Below, in pieces: positions 5,166 through 18,364 of a stretch of DNA of 64,000 nt (positions within the stretch are counted from its first letter, which is position 1; each line of letters begins with the position of its first letter). The translations under genes were made by a program, and so were the position numbers. The stretch is taken from positions 4,402,501-4,466,500 of the forward strand of contig NZ_CP097800.1 of NCBI RefSeq assembly GCF_000612545.2, given 5' to 3'. This stretch comes from Streptomyces sp. PCS3-D2. GTDB lineage: Bacteria > Actinomycetota > Actinomycetes > Streptomycetales > Streptomycetaceae. The notes below the pieces were generated by a model. That model was not told the origin of the DNA. It made no database searches and saw nothing but the letters and a program-made list of their open reading frames with translations.

Positions 5166-8100
5166 GTGTCGGTACCAGCGGCTGGATTTCAGCCAGTAAG
5201 AAGAAAATCGAAGATTAAACAGAGCGTCGCGATTCCGGTATTAGTGGCGCTCTCGTTATTCGTCGGAGCAGGCACGGCCGAGGCCGCGCAGTGGCAGCCC
5301 AAAGAGCAGCGTCGCTGGTCACCGGGCAGCCTGAAGAAGGCCGAATCGGTCTCGGGGAAGAACGCCCCGAAACCGGAAGTTAAAACTCCGAAGGGCGACG
5401 GGGCGCGAGCATGGCGGCCGGTGGACGTGTACTGGCCACCCGCTTCACGGGCGGAAGTGGACCTGGGCGCGGTGGCGTCCGTTCCTCCGCGCAGCGATCT
5501 TCTCGCCGCGCCTGCGCCCTCCGGTGTCGCCGCGCCTCTCGCCGCCGATCCGAGCCGCGCGGGTGCTGCTCCCGTCTGGGTGAGCTCGGCGCCGGTCAAG
5601 GACGCGCCGCGCTCCGGTAAGGCTGCCGTGCAGGTAACGGACAGGTCGGCTGCGGAGAAGGCTGGTGTGCAAGGGCTGCTGCTCGCAGTCCGACCAGTCG
5701 GGGAAGCGCCGAAGGGCGGCCCTGTCAGGGTTTCGGTGGACGCCTCGTACATCGCGGGAGCTTTCGGCGGCGACTGGCTGTCCCGGGCTCGCCTGGTTGC
5801 TCTGCCCGAGTGCGCGCTGACGTCTCCCGAGCGGGCGGAGTGTCGTACGCAGACACCCCTGCCGACCGCGAAGGACGGCAACCGTGCCGGGTTGCTCAGC
5901 ACGGAAGTGACTCTCAACGGCGCCTCGACAGCGGGCGGCGAGCGTGCCGGCAGCGCCTCGGACGCCGCAGGCGGGGCAACCGTGATCGCCGCATCAGCGG
6001 CTCCGGGCGGCCCGGCTGGTACCTATACGGCCACCAGCCTTGCCCCCTCCGGCAAGTGGACCAGTGGCAGCAACGCGGGCGGCTTCTCCTGGTCGTACCC
6101 GATCAACGTTCCCGACGGGCTGGGCGGTTCCAAGCCCGCTGTCTCCCTCGCCTACAACTCCCAATCCGTTGACGGTCGCACCGCTGCCACGAACAACCAG
6201 GCCTCATGGATCGGCGAAGGATGGGACTACTCTCCCGGGTTCGTCGAACGGGCCTTCAAGCCATGCGCCAAGGACGGCCAGGCCGAATCGAGTGAGCAGT
6301 GCTTGGCCGGCCACAACGCCACCCTTTCCTTGAACGGCAAGTCCTCGACTCTCGTGCGGAATGACGCGACCGGCACCTGGCGGCTCGAGGACGACGACGC
6401 ATCGAAGGTCGAACGGCTGACCGGCGCGGTCAATGGCGACAACAACGGTGAGTACTGGAAGGTCACCACCGCAGACGGTACCCAGTACTACTTCGGCGTG
6501 GGCCGAAAGCCGGGCAGTACGACCGCTCCACCGACGAACTCTGCCTGGACCACACCGGTCTACGGCAACAACTCCGGCGAGGAGTGCCACCAGTCCACCT
6601 TTGCCGCGTCCTGGTGCCAGCAGGCCTGGCGCTGGAATCTGGACTTCGTGGTCGACCCGCGCGGCGGGTTGATCACCCACTGGTACGACACGGAAACCAA
6701 TCACTACAAGCGCGGGGCGTCGGCTGCGACGCCCAACGGCGACCTCACCCCGTACATCCGAGGCGGCAGTCTGACCAAGATCACATATGGCTCGAAGCTC
6801 GCCGACGCGGACACCGTCAAGCCGACCGCCCAGGTGCTCTTCGGCACCTCCGAGCGCTGCCTTCCCGAGAAGGACGTTTTCGACTGCGCCTCGGCCAAGC
6901 TGACCAAGGCCAACGCCACCAAGTGGCCCGATGTCCCCTTCGACCAGAAGTGCGCGGGTACGGGCACCTGTGAGAACTACTCCGCCACGTTCTGGACCAC
7001 CAAGCGCCTCACCAAGATAACTACCCAGGTCCTGAACACCGCCGGCGGCTATGACAACGTCGACCTCTACGAGCTCAAGCACGAGTTCCCCAACCCCGAG
7101 GACCACACGGCGCCCGCCCTGTGGCTCTCCTCGCTGACCCGCACCGGCTACGACGGCGAGACCAAGTTCGAGACCAAGCCCGTCACTTTCACCGGCAAGC
7201 TGAGGAACAATCGCGTCGACTCCAGTGTCGACAACAGGCCCGCGATGAACCGGCGCCGCGTCGTCGGGATCACGTCCGAAACCGGCCAAGTCATCGACGT
7301 CGGATACGCGGACCAGGACTGCGCGCCGGGAGCCGGCCTGCCGTCCTCGAAGGACGCGAACACCACACGCTGCTTCCCGGTCTACTGGAACCCGGACGGC
7401 AAGAGCCCCAATGATCCGACCCTGGACTGGTTCCACAAGTACGTCGTCACCCGCGTCACCGAGATCGACCCCTTCGGCGGTTCCCGCCCCCAAGAGACGC
7501 GGTACGAGTACGTCGGCGGCGCCGCCTGGCACCGGGACGACGAGGAGCTGACCGAGGACAAGCGCCGCACCTGGAACCAATTCCGCGGATACGAACAGGT
7601 CATCACCCGCGCCGGCGCCGCCCCCGACGCCGTCTCCAAGACTGCGGCCTTCTACCTGCGCGGCATGGACGGAGACGTCAAGGCCGACGGCAGCAAGCGC
7701 ACCGCCACATTCACCGGCCTCACAGGGAACACGGTCAAGGACAGCAACCCGCTTGCCGGTACTCTCCGCGAAACCCAGACCTTCGCCTCCGACGGTGGCG
7801 AACTCGTCACCGTGTCCCAGAACGAGCCGTGGCTCTCAGCCGCCACCGCAACACACAGCCGGGGTACGAAACTTCCCGCCCTCACGGCCCAGATGCAGCG
7901 AGAGGGCTCCTCCCAGGAGAAGAAGTTGCGTGCCGACAAGACGTGGCAGATTACTTCGGAGACCGTGAAGTACGACGACACCTACGGCATGGAGCAATGG
8001 ACCCTGGACCGGGCCGACGGTTTCCCGGACACCTGCACCGTGACGTCCTATGCCCGCAACACCGCCGCCTGGATGATCGACCGCGTCTCCGCAACAGTCG

Positions 8101-11100
8101 AGATCCGGAGCAGCGACTGCACCGCGGAAGCGACGGAGGCGAACACCCTCAGCCGTAACCGCACCTATTACGACGGCCAGCCCCACGGCACCCTCACCGG
8201 CTCCGGCCAGGTCACCAGTACGGAGGAACTGGACCGCTTCGAGTCCGGTCAGCCGAAGTACATCGTCAAGAGCGCAACGACTTACGACGCCTACGGTCGC
8301 GTCACCAGTGCCACCGATGCCGCCGGTGCCAAGACCACGACTGCGTACGAGCCGGCCGTGCCTGCTCCCGCCACCACGGTCAAGGTCACCAACGCCAAGG
8401 ACTGGACGACCACGACGACCCTGCACCCGCTGCGTGCTGTGCCGGTCAAGGTTGTGGACCAGAACAACCGCACCACCGAGGTGGCCTACGACCCGCTCGG
8501 CAGGACCACGGGCGTCTGGCTCCCCGGTCGCGCACGCAGCGCCGGCGCCAGCAAGGTCTTCGAGTACGACCTCACCAACACGGCCGCGAGTTCCGTCACC
8601 ACCCGGACGCTCCGCTCGAACCAGTCGTACGCGACCTCCATCGCAATCCTCGACGCGTTCGGACAGCAGGTCCAGGTCCAGTCGACCCCGCAGAACGGAG
8701 CGGCAACCAGCCGTCTGATCACTGACACGTACTACGACAGCCACGGCCGTGCCTTCAAGACCAACGAGCAGTACTTCAACACCACATCAGACCCGGTGAA
8801 GACCCGCTTCATCGCCGACGAGAACATGGTTCCGGGCCAGAACGGCACCCTCTACGATGGAATCGGCCGTCCGGTCGCCAAGACCTTCTCGTCCAAGGCG
8901 ATCGAGCAGTGGCGCACCACCACCGCCTACCCCGGCGCCGACCGCACCGACACCACACCGCCGAAGGGAGAAGCGGCCGGCAGCGTCATCACCGACGCCC
9001 TCGGGCACACGGTCGAGCGGCGCAAGTACAAGTCCGCCAAGCCCGAGGGGGACTTCGACAGTACCCGGTACGCGTACAACCTCGACGGGAAGCTCACCCG
9101 GATCACAGACCCGGCCGGGAACGTCTGGACCTACGAATACGATCTCCGCGGCCGCCAGATCCGCTCGCTGGATCCCGACAAGGGCGCCTCGAGCGTCACG
9201 TACGACGACGCCGGGCGTCCTGTATCCACAGAGGATGCGCGCGGCACCAGGGTCTTCACCACCTATGACATCCTCGGCCGCCCCACATCCCGCAACCTGA
9301 ACACCGTCGACGGCACCAAGCTGGCCACGTACGAGTACGACACCCTGCTCCCCGGCCAGCTCACCGCCTCCACCAGCTGGGTGGAGGGCAAGCCCTGGCG
9401 GCAGGAAACCACTGGTTACGACACCGGGTACCGGTCCACCGGCACCAAACTCACGGTCCCCGCAGGCGAAGGTGCGCTTACCGGCACCTACACCTCCGCC
9501 ACCACCTACGACCCCATCACGGGGCTGGAGCGCCGCACCACGCTGCCCGCCATGGGCGGTCTGCCCGAGGAGCGCCTGAGCACAGGACGCAATGTCAACG
9601 GCTTGCCGGTCTCCTACGGATCGGACAACGTCGCCTACGTCAACTTCACCGATTACGACGAGTTCGGCATGGTGCAGCGCACGACCTTCGGTGACGACCC
9701 GCGGCAGGTCAGCTTTACCCAGACCCGCGACCCGGCCACCGGACGTCTTCTGAATACTCAGCTCAAGAAGCAGGACTCCGGGTCACCTGTCGACATCACG
9801 GACTACACCTACAACCCGGTCGGCGATGTCACCTCGGTCACCAGCACCCAGGGCGCCGCACACGAGACCCAGTGCTTCACGCACGACTACCTGCGCCGCC
9901 TGACTCAGGCCTGGACCGACACCGGAGGCACCGCGACCCAGCCAGGACCGTCCGTCCCCGGCATCGGCGCCTGTGCCAACACCGCTCCGCAGCCAGGCAA
10001 GATCGGCGGCATCGCGCCGTACCACCAGTCCTTCACCTACGACGTCACCGGCAACCGCACCTCATCCACCGACCACGACACCGCCGGCGACACGGCCAAG
10101 ACCGTCACCACCACTCACACCTACCCGGCGCCCGGCTCCCCGCGCCCCCACGCCCCGACCTCCACCACCAAGAAGACAGGCGCAGGCCCGTCCGTCAGCA
10201 GGGCCACCACCTACGACGCAGCAGGCAACACACTCACCCGCCCCGGGGCCGCGGACACCACGCAGACGCTGACCTGGACGCCCGAAGGCAAACTCGCCTC
10301 GGCGACAACCGCTGCCGGGACGTCCACGTACCTCTACGACGCCGACGGCAACCGCCTGCTACGCAGGGACCCGGGGAAGACAACTCTCTACCTCGGCTCG
10401 AACGAACTCACCCTCAACACTGGCACGAACGTGGTGTCTGGTACGCGCTACTACGCCACCCCCGGCGGCACCACCATTGTCCGCACGTCTGATGGCAAGA
10501 TCTCCTACGTCGCCGCCGACCACCACAACACCGGCACCACCGTCATCGACGCCGCGACCCTTCAGGTCCAGCGCCGCGCGACCAAGCCCTTCGGCGAGGA
10601 ACGCGGCTCAGGGCCGGCCTCGTGGCCCGGAGAACGGGGCTTCGTCGGAGGGACGCAGGACAAGAGCACCGGCCTCACCCACCTCGGAGCCCGCGAATAC
10701 GACCCGGCCCTGGGCCGCTTCCTCTCCGTGGACCCGCTGATGGTGGCGGACGACCCGCGCCAGCACAACGCCTACCAGTACGGCAACAACAGCCCCCTCA
10801 CCGAGTGGGACCCGACGGGCAAAGCCCTCCCGGAGTGCCGCAGCGGCATGTACAAGTGCACCAATGGCAGCAATCCGTACGACTACGGCAACAACTACGA
10901 GAAAGAAGTCGCCATCGCCGGCGGGACGCTCGATACGGCGTATGTGAAACGGAAGATCCGTGCCAACTATGCCTGTCGAAAAGACCCCGGATGTAAGTCC
11001 TCCAATAGGGGTTGGTCAACTTCCTCGGTGAAGGCGGATAAGAAGCCGCAGAAGAAGGGTTTTGTCGCGAAAATCCGTGACGCGTGGAACGTCAGCCTTG

Positions 11101-11522
11101 GGAGTTCAGACTGGTGGAAGCATAAGGGTGTAAATCTCGCCATCGGAGTTGTTGCGGCGGCAGGAACGGCGGCATGTATCGCGTCTGTAGTCTGTGGCGG
11201 CGGGCTGTTCTTAGTAGGCGCTGCCGCACTATTCACGGCTGGATTGGGCGCTCACATGGCGGTTGCATCCGAAGAGGAAAGGGCTCGCGGGGCAACTCAG
11301 TTCCTCCTCCCTACCGCGAAGGCCGAGGCTATGGGGATGATCGGCGGTGCAACGTTTGGGCGAGGTCTTCTGGGCGGCCTCGTTCTGGGCCCCAAGCAGG
11401 GCATCGCGGGTCCGGGGCTGACGACTCGAGGGGCCTCTGACCCGCTATTCGCTGGCCTTGCCAGGAACGACTACGCTGGCATGACGGGGAGGGTGGTCAC
11501 ATACATGAAGAACCTATTCTAG
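5166..11522 (+). CDS. Rhs-family polymorphic toxin with signal peptide
   Basis: A 2118-aa Rhs/YD-repeat protein. GTG start with GGGGGGA six bases upstream; residues ~15-42 form a Sec signal (VAIPVLVALSLFVGAGTAEA). A beta-rich leader precedes an SpvB-like segment near 315-370 (KPAVSLAYNSQS, WIGEGWDYSPGF). YD repeats then dominate (YDPLGRTTG, YDLRGRQIRSLDPDKG, YDDAGRPVSTEDARG), forming the cocoon that holds the toxin tip. The Rhs core (GAREYDPALGRFLSVDP, YQYGNNSPLTEWDPTG) ends near residue 1886. The remaining ~232 residues are the variable C-terminal domain, with a hydrophobic stretch (VCGGGLFLVGAAALF) and no toxin fold I recognise. An orphan cassette with the same core and a different tip lies at 22389-23798. 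A terminator and a candidate immunity gene follow directly. Confidence 0.93.
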   Translation: MSVPAAGFQPVRRKSKIKQSVAIPVLVALSLFVGAGTAEAAQWQPKEQRRWSPGSLKKAESVSGKNAPKPEVKTPKGDGARAWRPVDVYWPPASRAEVDLGAVASVPPRSDLLAAPAPSGVAAPLAADPSRAGAAPVWVSSAPVKDAPRSGKAAVQVTDRSAAEKAGVQGLLLAVRPVGEAPKGGPVRVSVDASYIAGAFGGDWLSRARLVALPECALTSPERAECRTQTPLPTAKDGNRAGLLSTEVTLNGASTAGGERAGSASDAAGGATVIAASAAPGGPAGTYTATSLAPSGKWTSGSNAGGFSWSYPINVPDGLGGSKPAVSLAYNSQSVDGRTAATNNQASWIGEGWDYSPGFVERAFKPCAKDGQAESSEQCLAGHNATLSLNGKSSTLVRNDATGTWRLEDDDASKVERLTGAVNGDNNGEYWKVTTADGTQYYFGVGRKPGSTTAPPTNSAWTTPVYGNNSGEECHQSTFAASWCQQAWRWNLDFVVDPRGGLITHWYDTETNHYKRGASAATPNGDLTPYIRGGSLTKITYGSKLADADTVKPTAQVLFGTSERCLPEKDVFDCASAKLTKANATKWPDVPFDQKCAGTGTCENYSATFWTTKRLTKITTQVLNTAGGYDNVDLYELKHEFPNPEDHTAPALWLSSLTRTGYDGETKFETKPVTFTGKLRNNRVDSSVDNRPAMNRRRVVGITSETGQVIDVGYADQDCAPGAGLPSSKDANTTRCFPVYWNPDGKSPNDPTLDWFHKYVVTRVTEIDPFGGSRPQETRYEYVGGAAWHRDDEELTEDKRRTWNQFRGYEQVITRAGAAPDAVSKTAAFYLRGMDGDVKADGSKRTATFTGLTGNTVKDSNPLAGTLRETQTFASDGGELVTVSQNEPWLSAATATHSRGTKLPALTAQMQREGSSQEKKLRADKTWQITSETVKYDDTYGMEQWTLDRADGFPDTCTVTSYARNTAAWMIDRVSATVEIRSSDCTAEATEANTLSRNRTYYDGQPHGTLTGSGQVTSTEELDRFESGQPKYIVKSATTYDAYGRVTSATDAAGAKTTTAYEPAVPAPATTVKVTNAKDWTTTTTLHPLRAVPVKVVDQNNRTTEVAYDPLGRTTGVWLPGRARSAGASKVFEYDLTNTAASSVTTRTLRSNQSYATSIAILDAFGQQVQVQSTPQNGAATSRLITDTYYDSHGRAFKTNEQYFNTTSDPVKTRFIADENMVPGQNGTLYDGIGRPVAKTFSSKAIEQWRTTTAYPGADRTDTTPPKGEAAGSVITDALGHTVERRKYKSAKPEGDFDSTRYAYNLDGKLTRITDPAGNVWTYEYDLRGRQIRSLDPDKGASSVTYDDAGRPVSTEDARGTRVFTTYDILGRPTSRNLNTVDGTKLATYEYDTLLPGQLTASTSWVEGKPWRQETTGYDTGYRSTGTKLTVPAGEGALTGTYTSATTYDPITGLERRTTLPAMGGLPEERLSTGRNVNGLPVSYGSDNVAYVNFTDYDEFGMVQRTTFGDDPRQVSFTQTRDPATGRLLNTQLKKQDSGSPVDITDYTYNPVGDVTSVTSTQGAAHETQCFTHDYLRRLTQAWTDTGGTATQPGPSVPGIGACANTAPQPGKIGGIAPYHQSFTYDVTGNRTSSTDHDTAGDTAKTVTTTHTYPAPGSPRPHAPTSTTKKTGAGPSVSRATTYDAAGNTLTRPGAADTTQTLTWTPEGKLASATTAAGTSTYLYDADGNRLLRRDPGKTTLYLGSNELTLNTGTNVVSGTRYYATPGGTTIVRTSDGKISYVAADHHNTGTTVIDAATLQVQRRATKPFGEERGSGPASWPGERGFVGGTQDKSTGLTHLGAREYDPALGRFLSVDPLMVADDPRQHNAYQYGNNSPLTEWDPTGKALPECRSGMYKCTNGSNPYDYGNNYEKEVAIAGGTLDTAYVKRKIRANYACRKDPGCKSSNRGWSTSSVKADKKPQKKGFVAKIRDAWNVSLGSSDWWKHKGVNLAIGVVAAAGTAACIASVVCGGGLFLVGAAALFTAGLGAHMAVASEEERARGATQFLLPTAKAEAMGMIGGATFGRGLLGGLVLGPKQGIAGPGLTTRGASDPLFAGLARNDYAGMTGRVVTYMKNLF

Positions 11523-12964: not shown

Positions 12965-13341
12965 GCCGCTCTCCCTCTTCGCCCCCGTGGCACCTCAGAG
13001 GCGCCCGTGATCATGCGTTCGGCGACGCTACCAGGGCTGACTACACAGCCATTGCCGAGGATCACTCTCTGCTGGCGACCAGCAGCACGTTCACCTGGTC
13101 ATCTGGCTGGCTTTGTGAAAGCGGCGTCGGTGCGCCCAACGCACAGGTTGGCTGATACGAGCCGGTGTGTGGCGGGGAGCTGACCTTGACCAGGGTCCGG
13201 GAAAGCTGGTCCGCTTATGCGCGATAGGGCGTCGGATTCGGGGGCTGCGTTCGTGACCAGAGCTACAGCTGGAAAGCTGTGCCGCGCCACAGGCGGCCAG
13301 CCCGAACGGACCAATCCCTGCTCCGTCAAGACGACCCACGT

Positions 13342-16119
13342 ATGAGGCTCCGGCGGGGGATTTCCGTCGCCGTCGTGGCCGCCGGCGGAGCCGTCACGAC
13401 CATGCTCGTGGGGCTCGTCACCAACGCCGTGTCCGATTCGGAGTGGCCCGGGTGGCTGGGGTGGTTGCAGCGGCATGGCTGGTTCTCGTTCGCTTTGCTA
13501 GGCGGGGCCATGGTCGGGCTGGCGGTGCTGCTTGCCGCGCTGTCGGAGTCGGGGGCGCCGGAACGCCGCACTGCGCCGACGCCCCAGCCAGAGGACGGGG
13601 CGGTGCCTCCGGGTGCTGCCCTCGTCCTGCGGTCCCTGCCGCGCGACACCACCGCCTTCACCGACCGGACCGCCGAGCTCGAGGCGCTGGTGCGGTCCGT
13701 ACGGAACTCGCAGGAGAGCGGCGAGGCGCTGCCTGTGCATGTGATCGACGGAATGCCAGGAGTCGGGAAGACGACGTTCGCCGTACACGCAGGACATGTG
13801 CTGTCGGAGCGGTTCCCGGACGGCCAGCTCTTCGTGAATCTCAACGGGCACACGACAGGAAGGCCCCCCGTCCAGGCCACGGAAGCGCTCGCATCGTTGC
13901 TGGCGGCGACCGGAGTGCCGGCGCAGCGGATCCCTGCCGGCGACGACCTGGGTGCGGTCACCGAGGCGAGGGCGGCCATGTGGCGGAGCCAGCTCGCGAA
14001 CAAGAAGGCACTGCTCATCCTCGACAACGCGTCCAGCTATCGCCAGCTGGAGCCCCTGCTCCCCGGCGGGAGCGACTGTCTCGTGCTGGTGACGAGCCGG
14101 AAGCGGTTGGCTGCGTACGAGGAGGTGGTCCTGCCAGTGGAGGCATTGCCGGCGGAGCATGCGGTCGACCTGTTCGTACGCCTCAGCGGGCGGTCGCCGG
14201 AGTCGCTCGATCGGTCCGTCCTCGAGCCGTTGGTGGAGCTGTGCGGGTACCTGCCACTGGGGGTGTCGTTGCTCGCCGCGCGGCTGCGCCATCGCCCGTC
14301 GTGGAGCGCCGAGGATCTCCGTGCGCGTCTGGTCACAGCCAGGGACCGGCTGGGAGAGCTCCGAGCTGGGGAGCGCGCGGTCGCCGCGACGTTCAGTCTG
14401 TCCTACCAGGACCTCACACCCGAGCGGCAGCACTTCTTCCGGTGTCTCGGCCTCTACCCTGGAACCGAGCTCGATGCCTTCTCCGGGGCCGCGCTCGGCT
14501 CGGTCTCGGTGGCGGCAGCACGCGAGGGACTCGACACGCTCTACGACGCCCACCTGATCGAGGAACACCCGGGAAGCCGGTTCCGGCTTCACGACCTCCT
14601 ACGCGACTATGCCCGCGGTCTCGCCGACGAGGGAGGCAGCATGACCCCTGTTCATGCCGTTCAGCGCGTGTGCTCCTACTACCTGGCCGTCCTCGCTGTC
14701 GCGAACAGACACATTGCCCGCAACGGCGCCTCCACACCGAATTCTCCGGATGGCGCCGCCCAGGTCGAGACCCCTCCCATCGATTCACGTACGGCGGCTC
14801 TCGGCTGGCTGGAGGACGAGCGGGCCAACGTCCTGGCCTGCATCCGAAGGGCGAACGACCTCGCGCTGCACGAGTTGGTGATCCACATGGCTGCGGCGAT
14901 GGCGCCCTTCCTGCGGCAGGCCGGGCCCTGGGACCAAGCCGTTGGCCTCCACCGGACCGCCGCCGAGGCCGCCCGGCACACCGGCGACCGGCGGGCGCTG
15001 GCCAACGCACTGGCCGAGCTCGGAGTCGTACGGCGCTTCATGGCGGCGTACCCCGAGGCCATCGAGGCACTGAACGAGGCGGTGACGGAGTACGAGGCGG
15101 TCGGCGAGAAGCGAGGCAAGGCCGACGCTCTGAACCAGGTGGGCATCGTCTGGTACATGACCGCGGACAACGACGCCTCTGCCCGGGCGCAGACCGAGGC
15201 CCTCGCGCTCTATCGGGAAGTCGGCGACCGTCTTGGCCAGGCGAACGCGCTCGCGGACCTCGGCATGGTGCGCCGGCAGACCAGCCAGTTCGACACAGCG
15301 GTGGCGGCACAGACCGAAGCGTTGTCGATCTACCGGGAGCTGGGCGACCGGTACGGAGAGGCCAACTCACTGCGGGACCTTGGCGTCGTGCACAGTCTCC
15401 TGGGCGAGTATCAGCTGGCTGCGCAGCGCCACCGTGAGGCATTCGACATCTACCAGGAACTCGACGACCGGGTCCACCAGGCGTACGCCCTCAACGAGCT
15501 CGGAGTCGTACGGCGCCTGACCGGCGATCCCACCGGAGCGCGGGAGGCTCACACCCAGGCACTGGAGTACTTCACCGAGCTCGGTGAACGGTTCGGCCGC
15601 ACGAACAGCGTTCGCCACCTCGGGGTACTGGACCGCATGGACGGGAACGTCACGGAGGCGATCCGGCTGTTGGACGACGCCCTGGGCTCGTACCGCGATC
15701 TCGGCAGCCGTGGCGGCGAAGCCGCCGCTCTGGGCGAGCTGGGTGTGGCCCGTGGGGTCGCCGGCGAGCGGGACGGTGCCGTCGAGTCGTTCCGGCGGAG
15801 TCTGGACATCCTCCGAGAGCTCGGCGACCGGTGCGGTGAGGCGGAGGTCCTGAACCACTGGGGGACGCTGCTGCACTCCTCCGGTGACTGGGCTGCCGCC
15901 CGCGGACTCTTCGAGCAGGCGCTGGGGCTGGCCCGCGACATCCGCTGCCCGCTTGAAGAGGCACGGGCTTTGGAGGGGATCGGCCGTTGCGACTGGACGG
16001 CCGGCGAACGGGCGCGGGGCGAAGGGGCGCTGCGTGAAGCGCGCGATGTGTACCGACGGTTGGGTATCGGCGGGGCGGCAGACGTCGTCGAGCGGCTCAT
16101 TGCGTCGCAGGCCGAGTAG
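13342..16119 (+). CDS. Membrane-anchored NB-ARC/TPR (STAND) protein of a RiPP-like cassette
   Basis: 925 aa from the ATG at 13342; no strong ribosome-binding site is visible and earlier in-frame starts exist. Two transmembrane helices lie within the first ~75 residues (VAVVAAGGAVTTMLVGLV; FSFALLGGAMVGLAVLLAAL), so the rest is probably cytosolic and membrane-tethered. An NB-ARC ATPase spans ~115-400, with Walker A GMPGVGKTTFA, Walker B-like KALLILDN, a VTSRKR sensor and a GYLPLGVSL (GLPL-type) motif. From ~530 to the end run about eight TPRs (LGVVRRxxxxxxxAxxxxxEAL). STAND proteins switch on a bound signal and usually oligomerise. The next genes encode a small peptide, a radical SAM maturase and an acetyltransferase on the same strand. 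TPR proteins accompany actinobacterial FxsA/FxsB RiPP loci, so a sensor or scaffold role is inferred. Confidence 0.85.
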   Translation: MRLRRGISVAVVAAGGAVTTMLVGLVTNAVSDSEWPGWLGWLQRHGWFSFALLGGAMVGLAVLLAALSESGAPERRTAPTPQPEDGAVPPGAALVLRSLPRDTTAFTDRTAELEALVRSVRNSQESGEALPVHVIDGMPGVGKTTFAVHAGHVLSERFPDGQLFVNLNGHTTGRPPVQATEALASLLAATGVPAQRIPAGDDLGAVTEARAAMWRSQLANKKALLILDNASSYRQLEPLLPGGSDCLVLVTSRKRLAAYEEVVLPVEALPAEHAVDLFVRLSGRSPESLDRSVLEPLVELCGYLPLGVSLLAARLRHRPSWSAEDLRARLVTARDRLGELRAGERAVAATFSLSYQDLTPERQHFFRCLGLYPGTELDAFSGAALGSVSVAAAREGLDTLYDAHLIEEHPGSRFRLHDLLRDYARGLADEGGSMTPVHAVQRVCSYYLAVLAVANRHIARNGASTPNSPDGAAQVETPPIDSRTAALGWLEDERANVLACIRRANDLALHELVIHMAAAMAPFLRQAGPWDQAVGLHRTAAEAARHTGDRRALANALAELGVVRRFMAAYPEAIEALNEAVTEYEAVGEKRGKADALNQVGIVWYMTADNDASARAQTEALALYREVGDRLGQANALADLGMVRRQTSQFDTAVAAQTEALSIYRELGDRYGEANSLRDLGVVHSLLGEYQLAAQRHREAFDIYQELDDRVHQAYALNELGVVRRLTGDPTGAREAHTQALEYFTELGERFGRTNSVRHLGVLDRMDGNVTEAIRLLDDALGSYRDLGSRGGEAAALGELGVARGVAGERDGAVESFRRSLDILRELGDRCGEAEVLNHWGTLLHSSGDWAAARGLFEQALGLARDIRCPLEEARALEGIGRCDWTAGERARGEGALREARDVYRRLGIGGAADVVERLIASQAE

Positions 16120-16225
16120 CGGGGCACGTGGCTGGATTCGATATGTCGCCGAGGGTAGCGTCGCTGCTACCTTGCGGGCTGGTCTGCCGCCTCAATCGCC
16201 GTTGCACTGCCCCGAGGAGCGTCGA

Positions 16226-16417
16226 ATGCCGTCACGTACGCCCGTTCCCGCACCACATGCTCCGGCGTCCGTCGTCGCGGAGTCGATCAACGGTTCGGTC
16301 GTCCTGGATCGTGTCGCCGTCCGCGTACGGCAGCGGCTGGCGGCCGAGCAGACGGCGTCAAACCACGCCGGCGAGGGTGGTCACCACGCTTCGCTGATCT
16401 GGACCTGGCCTCTTTGA
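16226..16417 (+). CDS. Candidate RiPP precursor peptide ending in WTWPL
   Basis: 63 aa from ATG 16226, with GGAG six bases upstream. An N-terminal leader rich in Val, Ala and Arg (VVLDRVAVRVRQRLAAEQ looks like an amphipathic helix) precedes a short C-terminal core, GEGGHHASLIWTWPL. There is no signal peptide and no transmembrane segment. The radical SAM/SPASM gene starts 13 bases after the stop. Aromatic residues and His near the C terminus are typical of substrates for cyclophane-forming radical SAM enzymes: FxS-type peptides, His-directed triceptides, and darobactin with its W-x-W core. Which residues are linked cannot be told from sequence. Confidence 0.75.
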   Translation: MPSRTPVPAPHAPASVVAESINGSVVLDRVAVRVRQRLAAEQTASNHAGEGGHHASLIWTWPL

Positions 16418-16430
16418 GTCGTTCCGCTCT

Positions 16431-17585
16431 ATGACACCGCGCGCGGACGTTGCCCCCTTTCGGTCGTTCATCCTCAAGGTTGCCAATCGCTGCAACATCG
16501 ACTGCGACTACTGCTACGTCTTCAACTCCGCAGACCAGGCGTGGCGGCACCTGCCTGCCCGGATGAGTACGGACGTGGCCCAGGCGGCTGGGCTGCGAAT
16601 CGGTGAGCACGCAGCGGTGCACGACCTGCGGAGCGTGCACGTCGTGCTGCACGGCGGTGAGCCGTTGCTCACCGGCCCCCGGCACATGGCAGACCTGCTC
16701 GGCGCCGTACAGGAGGGTGTTCCGGCCGGTGTGGCGGTCCGTTTCGAGCTTCAGACCAACGGGACGCTCCTCACGGAGCCGTGGCTGGACCTCTTCGAGC
16801 GGTACGAGGTCGTCGTGGGCGTCAGCCTCGACGGACCGCCGACCGCGAATGACCGGCACCGGCTGACACACGCCTCGCGATCGAGCGCCGCCTCGGCCGT
16901 ACGAGGCATCGAACTCCTGCGGTCCCGGCCTCACCTGTTCGCAGGGCTGCTCGTGGTCGTCGACCTGGCCAACGATCCGGTCGAGGTCCACGACTACCTT
17001 GCGTCGTTCGAGCCGCCTGTGATCGACTTCGGCCTGCCGCACGGGACGCACGACGAGCCGCCGCATCGCGACGACCCGAGTGTGCCCGAGTACGGGTTGT
17101 GGATGAGCCGCGTCTACGACGCTTGGCTCGCCCGGCCGGAGCAGCGGCACAGTGTGCGGATGCTGGAGGACATCGTGGCGCTGAGCTCCGGGGTGCACAG
17201 CTCGGTGGAGTCCCTCGGCCTGGCCCCGCCGACGAGCATCGTGATCGAGTCGGACGGCACGATCGAGGGCGTGGACACCCTGCGGTCCGTCGAGGAAGGC
17301 GCCTCCTGGCTGGGACGCGACGTCTTCAGCCAGTCCTTCAATGAAGTCCTTCACCATCCGAAGCTCCTGCACCGGCAGGACGGGAAGGCCGCGCTCGCTG
17401 ATCAGTGCCAGAGCTGTCCTCTGGTGGAGGTGTGCGGTGGGGGCTATCTACCGCACCGCTTCAGCACCGACCGCGGCTACCGAAACCCCTCGGTCTACTG
17501 CGCGGATCTGGAGTACCTCATCCGGCATGTTCAGGGCTCCCTGCGCCAGCACGGCTGGGCTCCTCAGGCACTGACGCCCCCGTAG
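16431..17585 (+). CDS. Radical SAM/SPASM peptide maturase (FxsB/HaaB-like)
   Basis: 384 aa. The radical SAM motif CNIDCDYCYVF (Cx3Cx2C, residues ~22-29) binds the 4Fe-4S cluster that cleaves S-adenosylmethionine. HGGEPLL and LQTNGTLL are the usual following motifs. The C terminus has a SPASM/twitch cysteine set (CQSCPLVEVCGGGYLPHRF, then YCADL) for auxiliary clusters. This architecture is that of RiPP maturases such as FxsB, which join aromatic side chains to neighbouring backbone carbons. It sits 13 bases after the candidate precursor, so that peptide is the obvious substrate. The enzyme class is certain; the exact crosslink and subfamily are inferred. Confidence 0.92.
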   Translation: MTPRADVAPFRSFILKVANRCNIDCDYCYVFNSADQAWRHLPARMSTDVAQAAGLRIGEHAAVHDLRSVHVVLHGGEPLLTGPRHMADLLGAVQEGVPAGVAVRFELQTNGTLLTEPWLDLFERYEVVVGVSLDGPPTANDRHRLTHASRSSAASAVRGIELLRSRPHLFAGLLVVVDLANDPVEVHDYLASFEPPVIDFGLPHGTHDEPPHRDDPSVPEYGLWMSRVYDAWLARPEQRHSVRMLEDIVALSSGVHSSVESLGLAPPTSIVIESDGTIEGVDTLRSVEEGASWLGRDVFSQSFNEVLHHPKLLHRQDGKAALADQCQSCPLVEVCGGGYLPHRFSTDRGYRNPSVYCADLEYLIRHVQGSLRQHGWAPQALTPP

Positions 17586-17663
17586 CCACGAGCCGTGCCG
17601 CCACGCCAGGATCACGCATTGAAACGAACGAGTGAAGCGATGAAAGAGCGACAGGAGATGTCG

Positions 17664-18137
17664 ATGACCGTGACGATCCGCCCCGCCGAAAGGCGCGACA
17701 CCGTGGCAGTGGCCGATCTGATCGAGGAGATCGAACGGTTCTACGGATCGACCGAGATCCAGCCACTCGAGGAGCGCCGCTCCCAGGTGGAGGAAGCGCT
17801 CTTCGGCTCCCCGCCATTGGCGTCCGCTCTCTTGGTCGAGGACGAGGCTGGTGATCTCGTCGGGCTCGCCGCCTACTCGTTCCTCTGGCCGGCAGCCGGC
17901 TCCTCCCACTCGCTGTTCCTGAAAGAGCTCTATGTCCGCGGCACCCTCCGGCGCCAGGGCATCGGCGCGCGCCTCATGGACGAGCTCCGTGCCCTGGCCT
18001 CCGCACGCCCCGGATGCAGTCGAGTCGAGTGGATGACGGACCACGACAACCCCGGCGCGCGCGCCTTCTACAAGTCGTTGGGGTTCGCGGAGTTCGACGG
18101 GAAGATCGTCTACCGTGTGGACACCGGTACGACGTGA
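17664..18137 (+). CDS. GNAT-family N-acetyltransferase of the RiPP-like cassette
   Basis: 157 aa. The ATG at 17664 is preferred over 17658 because GGAG at 17654-17657 is correctly spaced only for the later start. It covers a full GNAT fold: TIRPAERRDTVAVADLI at the N terminus, LKELYVRGTLRRQGIGARL as the acetyl-CoA pyrophosphate-binding motif A, and NPGARAFYKSLGF as motif B. It lies ~80 bp after the radical SAM gene on the same strand and is followed by a hairpin, so it probably ends the cassette. It could acetylate the matured peptide, giving modification or self-resistance, but the substrate is unknown. Confidence 0.88.
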   Translation: MTVTIRPAERRDTVAVADLIEEIERFYGSTEIQPLEERRSQVEEALFGSPPLASALLVEDEAGDLVGLAAYSFLWPAAGSSHSLFLKELYVRGTLRRQGIGARLMDELRALASARPGCSRVEWMTDHDNPGARAFYKSLGFAEFDGKIVYRVDTGTT

Positions 18138-18144
18138 GGGTGGG

Positions 18145-18178
18145 GCGGGGCCGTGAAGGAGCTGGTGACCGGCCCCGC
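18145..18178 (+). terminator. Hairpin ending the RiPP-like cassette
   Basis: GCGGGGCCG and CGGCCCCGC form a 9-bp perfect stem with a 16-base loop, eight bases after the acetyltransferase stop. Confidence 0.55.
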
Positions 18179-18364
18179 ACTGGGGATGGATCCACACACC
18201 TCCGGCCGGCCTCTGGCACCGGTTGAGCAGTAGCTATCCGCCGACCGCAGCCGAGGGAAACACGACCACGCAGGCGATCAGGCGGTGCGAGGAGTGCCAG
18301 ATGTCGGCGCCGGGTGAAAACTGACCGCTCGTCTTAATCGTTGCTGCTCGATTCGCGGCCTATA

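What the first reader, a model, noticed from the sequence alone, without database searches (positions are those of the whole stretch)
13342..18137. Four-gene RiPP-like system with a membrane-tethered NB-ARC/TPR protein
A STAND-type NB-ARC/TPR protein with two N-terminal membrane helices, a 63-aa peptide, a radical SAM/SPASM enzyme and a GNAT acetyltransferase are packed on one strand and closed by a hairpin. FxsA/FxsB-type loci also join a TPR protein to a radical SAM maturase. This peptide, however, lacks the FxSxx ending and has a different core, and the STAND protein is membrane-anchored. A peptide signal sensed or guarded by a STAND switch, possibly for regulation or defence, would be a little-described system.
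Basis: partly seen in the sequence, partly recalled or inferred. Interest (0 to 1): 0.85.

Follow-up and report, generated by a model that had tools for sequence, protein, structure and literature searches.

The report
Haa cyclophane peptide cassette with STAND protein
A Streptomyces-type gene set that makes a small cross-linked peptide and pairs it with a membrane-anchored switch protein; the set is already recognised in public gene catalogues, and what the peptide and the switch do together remains to be tested.

Summary
Window 13342-18137 (+) holds an NB-ARC/TPR protein with two N-terminal hydrophobic segments, a 63-aa peptide, a radical SAM/SPASM enzyme and a GNAT. It is not a new kind of system: three of the four hit curated NCBIfam equivalogs over cutoff (HaaT, HaaA, HaaN) and the enzyme is FxsB-family. 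Review passages say HaaB links His C2 to Ala C-beta. All four genes, in order, match in 35 of 37 named loci. In 296 congeners HaaA and HaaT pass cutoff in the same 19. His-x-Ala-Ser occurs in 36 of 36 peptides, here HHAS. Haa maturases form one clade apart from FxsB. A modified peptide paired with an NB-ARC/TPR ATPase was proposed for FxSxx systems.

Corrections and additions: the "closing hairpin" folds no better than shuffles and overlaps remains of a fifth gene. That gene, a Cys-rich ~117-aa ORF with no family match over cutoff, is full length after haaN in 21 of 35 named loci and truncated here; its family also occurs outside haa.

HaaT is most likely a membrane-tethered switch that binds the peptide through its TPRs; that step is inference.

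The parts
13342..16119 (+). haaT: 925-aa NB-ARC (STAND) protein with TPR superhelix and N-terminal two-segment membrane hairpin
   Evidence: NF041717 HaaT 1576 bits (cutoff 1125), profile 1-882 of 882 including the N-terminus; NB-ARC and TPR; hydropathy and conservation; AlphaFold2 model
13342..13551 (+). HaaT membrane hairpin (residues 1-70): hydrophobic segment, loop with W35, P36, G40, Q43, H45, W47 invariant, second hydrophobic segment
   Evidence: Mean majority fraction 0.91 for residues 8-30, 0.84 for the loop 31-47, 0.76 for residues 48-69, against 0.90 for 91-330, 0.56 for linker 70-90 and 0.85 overall, 32 sequences
13750..13776 (+). P-loop (Walker A, name recalled) GMPGVGKTT of HaaT, residues 137-145
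   Evidence: G137, M138, G140, V141, G142, K143, T144 invariant in 32 aligned HaaT
16226..16417 (+). haaA: 63-aa precursor peptide
   Evidence: NF041708 106.5 bits (cutoff 55), profile 1-63 of 63
16382..16393 (+). HaaA core motif His53-His54-Ala55-Ser56 (His-x-Ala-Ser)
   Evidence: HxAS in 36 of 36 peptides (window plus 35 named loci); x = A 28, Q 5, H 2, S 1
16431..17585 (+). haaB: 384-aa radical SAM/SPASM cyclophane maturase
   Evidence: TIGR04269 FxsB family 421 bits (cutoff 370); CxxxCxxC at 21-28 and Cys 326, 329, 335, 357; haa maturase clade 100/100
17640..18137 (+). haaN: GNAT acetyltransferase; the family model begins at residue 10 of this reading, so the true start may be the later ATG near 17664
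   Evidence: NF041716 HaaN 317.8 bits (cutoff 250); Pfam Acetyltransf_1 E 1e-17
18145..18178 (+).
18172..18306 (+). Remnant of the fifth gene (last third; 82% identical to residues 76-120 of the L009 ORF); most of the rest is missing here
   Evidence: tblastn; alignment with L009 and L010; profile match 71-115 of 117 in the own genome

Best explanation
This is a haa cassette (haaT-haaA-haaB-haaN). Shown by sequence: HaaA is a short peptide with a C-terminal His-x-Ala-Ser core (here HHAS) beside its own FxsB-type radical SAM/SPASM maturase. Carried over from the literature: HaaB joins C2 of His to C-beta of Ala; by the position of the invariant His and Ala this would be His53 to Ala55 here, a three-residue cyclophane. 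Inferred: HaaN acetylates the peptide (site unknown). HaaT, the only protein of the four with membrane segments noted here, is an ATP-driven STAND switch; its long TPR superhelix binds the modified peptide, and ATP binding or hydrolysis in the NB-ARC changes the state of its N-terminal membrane hairpin. The peptide would thus be an intracellular or membrane-proximal ligand for HaaT (signal, guard or trigger) rather than a freely secreted antibiotic. Confidence is about 0.97 for family identity, 0.8 for the crosslink position and 0.35 for HaaT as receptor of the peptide; the figure given is for the whole chain.
For: Family identity. Order and co-occurrence: 35 of 37 loci; HaaA and HaaT over cutoff in the same 19 of 296 genomes, all 19 among the 21 with HaaN over cutoff. 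Motif in 36 of 36. Own maturase clade, 100/100, stem 1.18. His C2 to Ala C-beta bond by HaaB, and by ScaB on His-Ala-Ala: passages of review PMC11002830. HaaT: P-loop, LLILDNA and most of CGxLPLG invariant; first membrane segment as conserved as the NB-ARC region, linker not; the TPR region of the model is most like LGN TPR domains solved with bound partners, and a STAND-TPR protein (6mfv) is among the 50 hits listed. A HaaT-like STAND (38% identity) lies one gene after another FxsB-family maturase in L068. Precedent for AP-ATPase/TPR with modified peptides: PMC7159879 section 24. Broken cassettes: HaaT matches stop at residues 530 and 465 in G005 and G344, and only N-terminal pieces match in L042 and L044, with no HaaA or HaaB match.
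Against: Nothing shows binding of HaaA to HaaT. HaaN over cutoff occurs in two genomes (G209, G219) without HaaA or HaaT over cutoff. HaaT relatives (about 40% identity, match beginning after the hairpin; their N-termini were not examined) at L065-L067 and L069 have no maturase match in the fetched flanks, so the NB-ARC/TPR module is not tied to such peptides. The second membrane segment is less conserved (0.76) than the protein's mean (0.85). AlphaFold confidence is low for the hairpin and much of the NB-ARC. The Foldseek TPR matches are generic. The published HaaB (WP_133931326.1) was not compared directly, and no HaaB-level model was among the 25 best NCBIfam hits shown.
Confidence: 0.45

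Rival explanations
1. HaaT is a biosynthetic helper: a membrane-tethered scaffold that brings HaaA, HaaB and HaaN together or hands the product to a general protease or exporter; the product is a secreted RiPP with antimicrobial or signalling activity.
For: NCBIfam names the family 'cyclophane-containing RiPP biosynthesis TPR protein'. HaaT and HaaA go together. Apart from haaT, haaB and haaN, no neighbour cluster was shared by more than 8 of 36 loci in a crude survey.
Against: A full ATPase switch is more than a scaffold needs (inference). The review passages report the HaaB crosslink after heterologous expression of candidate clusters in E. coli, but they do not say which genes were included, so this does not settle whether HaaT is needed. 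The neighbour survey is weak: it clustered HaaN in only 15 of 36 loci, and the shared clusters were not annotated.
Confidence: 0.27
2. The cassette is an anti-phage or self-killing system: HaaT is an NLR-like sensor whose N-terminal hairpin is a membrane-acting effector, and the modified peptide sets or releases it on infection.
For: STAND architecture with a partly conserved membrane hairpin at the N-terminal position, where such proteins often carry effectors (recalled; for the hairpin); published proposal that processed peptides amplify AP-ATPase conflict systems; patchy presence (19 of 296 genomes) and several decayed copies.
Against: PADLOC gave only a generic TPR hit and viperin-like radical SAM hits. 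HaaT is highly conserved among the loci aligned (mean column identity 83%), unlike a fast-evolving receptor (inference). Defence genes beside the loci were not searched for.
Confidence: 0.2
3. HaaT is a regulator in the manner of AfsR: the peptide modulates a signalling ATPase that acts on development or metabolism through a partner.
For: HaaT 92-761 aligns with AfsR 284-943 (349 bits), that is, without the first 283 positions of the AfsR model.
Against: The AfsR cutoff is 1430 bits. HaaT has a membrane hairpin where AfsR has its N-terminal part (that this part binds DNA is recalled). The module is common: all 296 genomes have some match to the HaaT model at E 0.001 or better.
Confidence: 0.08

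Closest known systems
Haa triceptide family (HaaA/HaaB/HaaT/HaaN; NF041708, NF041717, NF041716)
   Same: The three named models over cutoff; same order as relatives; His-x-Ala core
   Different: Core is HHAS rather than the commoner HAAS (28 of 36); the fifth neighbour gene is truncated
FxSxx (Fxs) systems: FxsA, FxsB/FxsBH, FxsC, FxSxx TPR protein
   Same: Maturase in the FxsB family (TIGR04269 over cutoff); an NB-ARC/TPR partner; two loci with Fxs-model genes lie in the same genome
   Different: No FxSxx ending; HaaT scores 117 bits against the 300 cutoff of the FxSxx TPR model; no FxsC hit among the four proteins; haa maturases are a separate clade
ScaB system (review PMC11002830)
   Same: His-Ala-Ala substrate and His C2 to Ala C-beta crosslink (passages)
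   Different: Sequences not compared here; gene context of ScaB not seen
AP-ATPase-coupled peptide-processing systems (Kaur et al. 2020, PMC7159879)
   Same: Small peptide, SPASM radical SAM enzyme and AP-ATPase with TPRs (section 24)
   Different: Those are described with a metallopeptidase and vWA/MoxR or MinD/ParA-like parts; none is among the four genes here
AfsR (NF053617)
   Same: NB-ARC/TPR module
   Different: N-terminal part of AfsR not matched; membrane hairpin instead

Membership tests
Haa cyclophane RiPP cassette | Precursor passes HaaA model NF041708 | tested here: met
   106.5 bits, cutoff 55
Haa cyclophane RiPP cassette | TPR protein passes HaaT model NF041717 | tested here: met
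   1576 bits, cutoff 1125
Haa cyclophane RiPP cassette | GNAT passes HaaN model NF041716 | tested here: met
   317.8 bits, cutoff 250
Haa cyclophane RiPP cassette | Adjacent radical SAM/SPASM maturase of the cyclophane-forming kind | tested here: met
   TIGR04269 421 bits, cutoff 370; YhhB, XyeB and GrrM models below cutoff; one clade for the haa maturases
Haa cyclophane RiPP cassette | His-x-Ala motif in the core | tested here: met
   Window HHAS; HxAS in 36 of 36
Haa cyclophane RiPP cassette | Enzyme is the orthologue of the characterised HaaB (WP_133931326.1) | not tested
   Sequence not available here; accession only from review passages
Haa cyclophane RiPP cassette | His C2 to Ala C-beta crosslink formed | not testable with these tools
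   Needs MS/MS and NMR; reported for HaaB in review passages
FxSxx system | Peptide ends in FxSxx | tested here: not met
   Ends SLIWTWPL; only the HaaA model hit at E 1 or better
FxSxx system | TPR protein passes NF040586 | tested here: not met
   116.9 bits, cutoff 300
FxSxx system | FxsB-family maturase | tested here: met
   but outside the clade of the other FxsB-family enzymes sampled
AfsR regulators | Passes NF053617, with its N-terminal part | tested here: not met
   349 bits, cutoff 1430; best stretch is profile 284-943
Known anti-phage defence system | Specific PADLOC model match | tested here: not met
   Generic TPR and viperin-like hits only, E 0.01 or better

The most novel reading that the evidence does not exclude
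The haa cassette is a peptide-gated, membrane-embedded STAND switch: a ribosomal peptide closed into a His-Ala cyclophane is the ligand that arms or restrains an NLR-like ATPase whose membrane hairpin is the output, with a Cys-rich fifth protein as an optional partner. This would be a RiPP acting as an internal immune or developmental cofactor, not as a secreted compound.
Probability: 0.25. Interest if true: 0.8.

Novelty: new member of a known kind. Interest (0 to 1): 0.38.

Why it matters
The family is named, but I found no report of its physiology in the searches made (the primary paper is not held). The close pairing of a crosslinked peptide with a membrane-tethered STAND protein makes a clear question testable: can a RiPP be the ligand of an NLR-like switch? 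The small gene set (four genes, 4.8 kb) makes a genetic and biochemical test feasible. The fifth gene family, for which no Pfam, NCBIfam or PHROGs model matched over cutoff, is a new lead.

Tried and rejected
Tried without yield: literature searches for the gene names returned mostly unrelated words; the one useful paper there was the review PMC11002830. The primary paper (10.1021/jacs.2c00521) and a review (10.1039/d3np00030c) are not held. Papers seen: PMC11002830, passages only; PMC7159879, passages and section 24 in full; all others as search listings. A sigma-70 promoter scan found nothing, which says little for this kind of organism. A search for other copies of the membrane hairpin in the genome found, besides itself, nothing better than E 0.19. 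For the fifth protein, the structure model (mean pLDDT 75) gave no PDB fold match better than E 5.7, and the profile no PDB sequence match better than E 1.1.

Considered and rejected: membership in FxSxx systems and in AfsR (features not met); the hairpin as a terminator; the upstream GTG start at 13279 for HaaT (the family profile starts at residue 4 of the 13342 reading). The fifth gene as a strict haa component was rejected: 25 of the 39 genomes that match its profile have no HaaA over cutoff.

Rows dropped and limits: L042 and L044 (HaaT fragments without the other genes) are left out of the n = 35 counts. The HaaT alignment uses the window and 31 of 37 named loci (L013, L033, L034, L040, L042, L044 left out). 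For the tree, loci L005, L074, L075 and L076 and maturase hits under 300 residues were left out; 89 rows became 77 distinct ones. The formal label count there gave 4 changes, not 1, because rows L080, L082 and L083, from haa genomes G075, G258 and G025, were labelled 'other' for short flanks. In the 296-genome searches only a capped number of first-look candidates per genome was scored (20 for HaaA, 12 for HaaN, 3 for HaaT, 15 for the fifth gene), so misses are possible.
Full report
What is there. The window lies at G000:C1:4402501-4466500 of a 7.6-Mb genome. On the + strand at 13342-18137 lie four genes. The first codes for 925 aa with NB-ARC and TPR domains and two hydrophobic stretches at its start. 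The second codes for a 63-aa peptide at 16226-16417, the third for a 384-aa radical SAM/SPASM enzyme at 16431-17585, and the fourth for a GNAT ending at 18137.

Known family. NCBIfam names three of the four at equivalog level over cutoff: HaaT NF041717 (1576 bits, cutoff 1125), HaaA NF041708 (106.5, cutoff 55) and HaaN NF041716 (317.8, cutoff 250). The enzyme passes the FxsB-family model TIGR04269 (421, cutoff 370), while the YhhB, XyeB and GrrM models stay below their cutoffs. From passages of a review (PMC11002830): HaaB (WP_133931326.1) forms a His C2 to Ala C-beta bond, and ScaB does the same on a His-Ala-Ala motif. I did not see the primary paper (not held).

Conservation of the set. A scan of species genomes with HaaT gave 37 named loci; in 35 of 37 tblastn finds all four genes in the same order and strand, and the other two (L042, L044) are HaaT fragments only. 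HaaA and HaaB are 13 bases apart in 29 of 36 loci including the window. In searches of 296 congeneric genomes HaaA and HaaT pass cutoff in the same 19, and HaaN in those 19 plus two more. Broken cassettes exist: in G005 the HaaT match stops at residue 530 and runs straight into the end of haaN; in G344 only residues 1-465 match; in G209 the C-terminal half of HaaB and HaaN remain; in G219 only HaaN is found.

The peptide. The core His-x-Ala-Ser is found in 36 of 36 peptides (window plus 35 named loci); x is Ala in 28, Gln in 5, His in 2, Ser in 1. The window and L023 (S. virginiae) have HHAS. The leader carries a VLxRVAxRVxxRL-like stretch (seen by eye), a likely recognition helix (inference).

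The maturase tree. Of 77 distinct maturase sequences, the 42 labelled haa and three more from haa genomes with short flanks form one group with support 100/100 and a long stem (1.18). The two other FxsB-family enzymes of the same genome that pass cutoff (L078, L079) lie outside. Long branches meet at L079, so its exact place is unsure. Those two loci carry Fxs-model genes: L078 has FxsBH and FxsC, L079 an FxsB-family enzyme and an FxSxx TPR protein; I did not look for their peptides. FxsB-family enzymes are common: 48 of 61 genomes of the wider family have one over cutoff.

HaaT. The P-loop, LLILDNA (Walker B, name recalled) and CGxLPLG are invariant or nearly so over 32 sequences. The first hydrophobic segment is as conserved as residues 91-330 (mean majority fraction 0.91 and 0.90), and the loop keeps W35, P36, G40, Q43, H45 and W47 in all 32; the second segment is less conserved (0.76; protein mean 0.85), the linker least (0.56). 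This suggests a working part and not a mere anchor, at least for the first segment and loop (inference). The AlphaFold2 model is confident for the TPR superhelix from about residue 530, poor for the hairpin and parts of the NB-ARC. The best PDB matches are LGN TPR domains, solved with bound partners; a STAND-TPR protein (6mfv) ranks 25th. The module is shared with AfsR (349 bits against a 1430 cutoff) and with a STAND protein one gene away from another FxsB-family maturase, L068. Four other relatives (L065-L067, L069) have no maturase match nearby.

The hairpin and a fifth gene. The hairpin after haaN folds no better than shuffles and no terminator-like site is found there. Alignment with L009 (96% identical HaaT) shows that relatives have an ORF there that the window has mostly lost. 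This ORF (112-124 aa; C6xxC9, C17xC19 and C60xH62 invariant, C108xxC111 nearly so) is full length (match of at least 105 aa) in 21 of 35 named loci, within 60 bases of haaN in 20 of those 21, partial in 4 of 35 and not found in 10 of 35; one of the ten, L014, gave an 18-residue match in an earlier search. The window has a 45-residue remnant at 18172-18306. In the 296-genome draw a full copy lies beside haa in 11 of 19 haa genomes (by coordinates). It evolves under purifying selection (median dN/dS 0.31 over 204 pairs with dS between 0.1 and 2, highest 0.57). No Pfam family (four proteins) or PHROGs family (two proteins) matched at E 1, and NCBIfam gave only one hit far below cutoff, to ribosomal L37Ae at E 0.0056, for one of four. 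It is not specific to haa: 39 of 296 genomes match its profile, 25 of them without HaaA over cutoff, in mixed surroundings (nine regions viewed). I therefore list it as a frequent neighbour, not a defining part.

Other neighbours. In a crude survey of up to 8 kb on either side, no cluster other than haaT, haaB and haaN was shared by more than 8 of 36 loci. The gene caller missed known genes (HaaN in 15 of 36) and the shared clusters were not annotated, so this is weak evidence that no protease or transporter belongs to the set.

How it may work. Shown: gene set, conservation, motif, intact catalytic and ATPase motifs. From literature: the crosslink. Inferred: acetylation of the peptide, binding to the TPRs, and a membrane output. 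A 2020 study (PMC7159879, section 24) proposed that processed peptides of AP-ATPase-coupled systems, some modified by a SPASM radical SAM enzyme, act as toxins or signals; haa fits that idea but lacks, among its four genes, the metallopeptidase and other parts named there.

Verdict. An ordinary member of a named family in its four core genes, with a less common HHAS core and a lost fifth neighbour. The interest lies in the untested link between peptide and STAND switch.

Noticed in passing
L009:12811-13158 and 20 other named haa loci; window remnant 18172-18306: Cys-rich ~117-aa protein family after haaN, without a family match over cutoff, under purifying selection, also found elsewhere in the genus.
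   Followed up: partly
L110:8218-8580: A fifth-gene homologue lies a few kb from ORFs that look like a type I-E CRISPR (Cas) operon; the naming is by eye and recall.
   Followed up: no
L026, L027, L029, L031, L032, L034, 4-8 kb upstream of haaT; L111-L113: Relaxase-like ORFs (by eye and recall) recur near some haa loci and near fifth-gene copies outside haa, which hints at mobile islands.
   Followed up: no
L026, L027, L029, L031, L032, L034, L035, L036 downstream of haa: Large minus-strand ORFs of one cluster recur in 8 loci and a methyltransferase-like ORF in 6; by eye another RiPP, lanthipeptide-like, cluster may sit beside haa in this group.
   Followed up: no
L068:6146-11586: Another FxsB-family maturase with a 62-aa ORF, a 374-aa ORF and a HaaT-like STAND protein (38% identity) on one strand; neither the 62-aa nor the 374-aa ORF matched an NCBIfam family at E 0.001.
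   Followed up: partly
L070 (G005), L071 (G344): Decayed haa cassettes: N-terminal HaaT remnants; in L070 next to the end of haaN and followed by a fifth-gene copy.
   Followed up: partly
window 5166-11522: 2118-aa ORF with RHS/YD-repeat appearance (by eye) upstream of the cassette.
   Followed up: no
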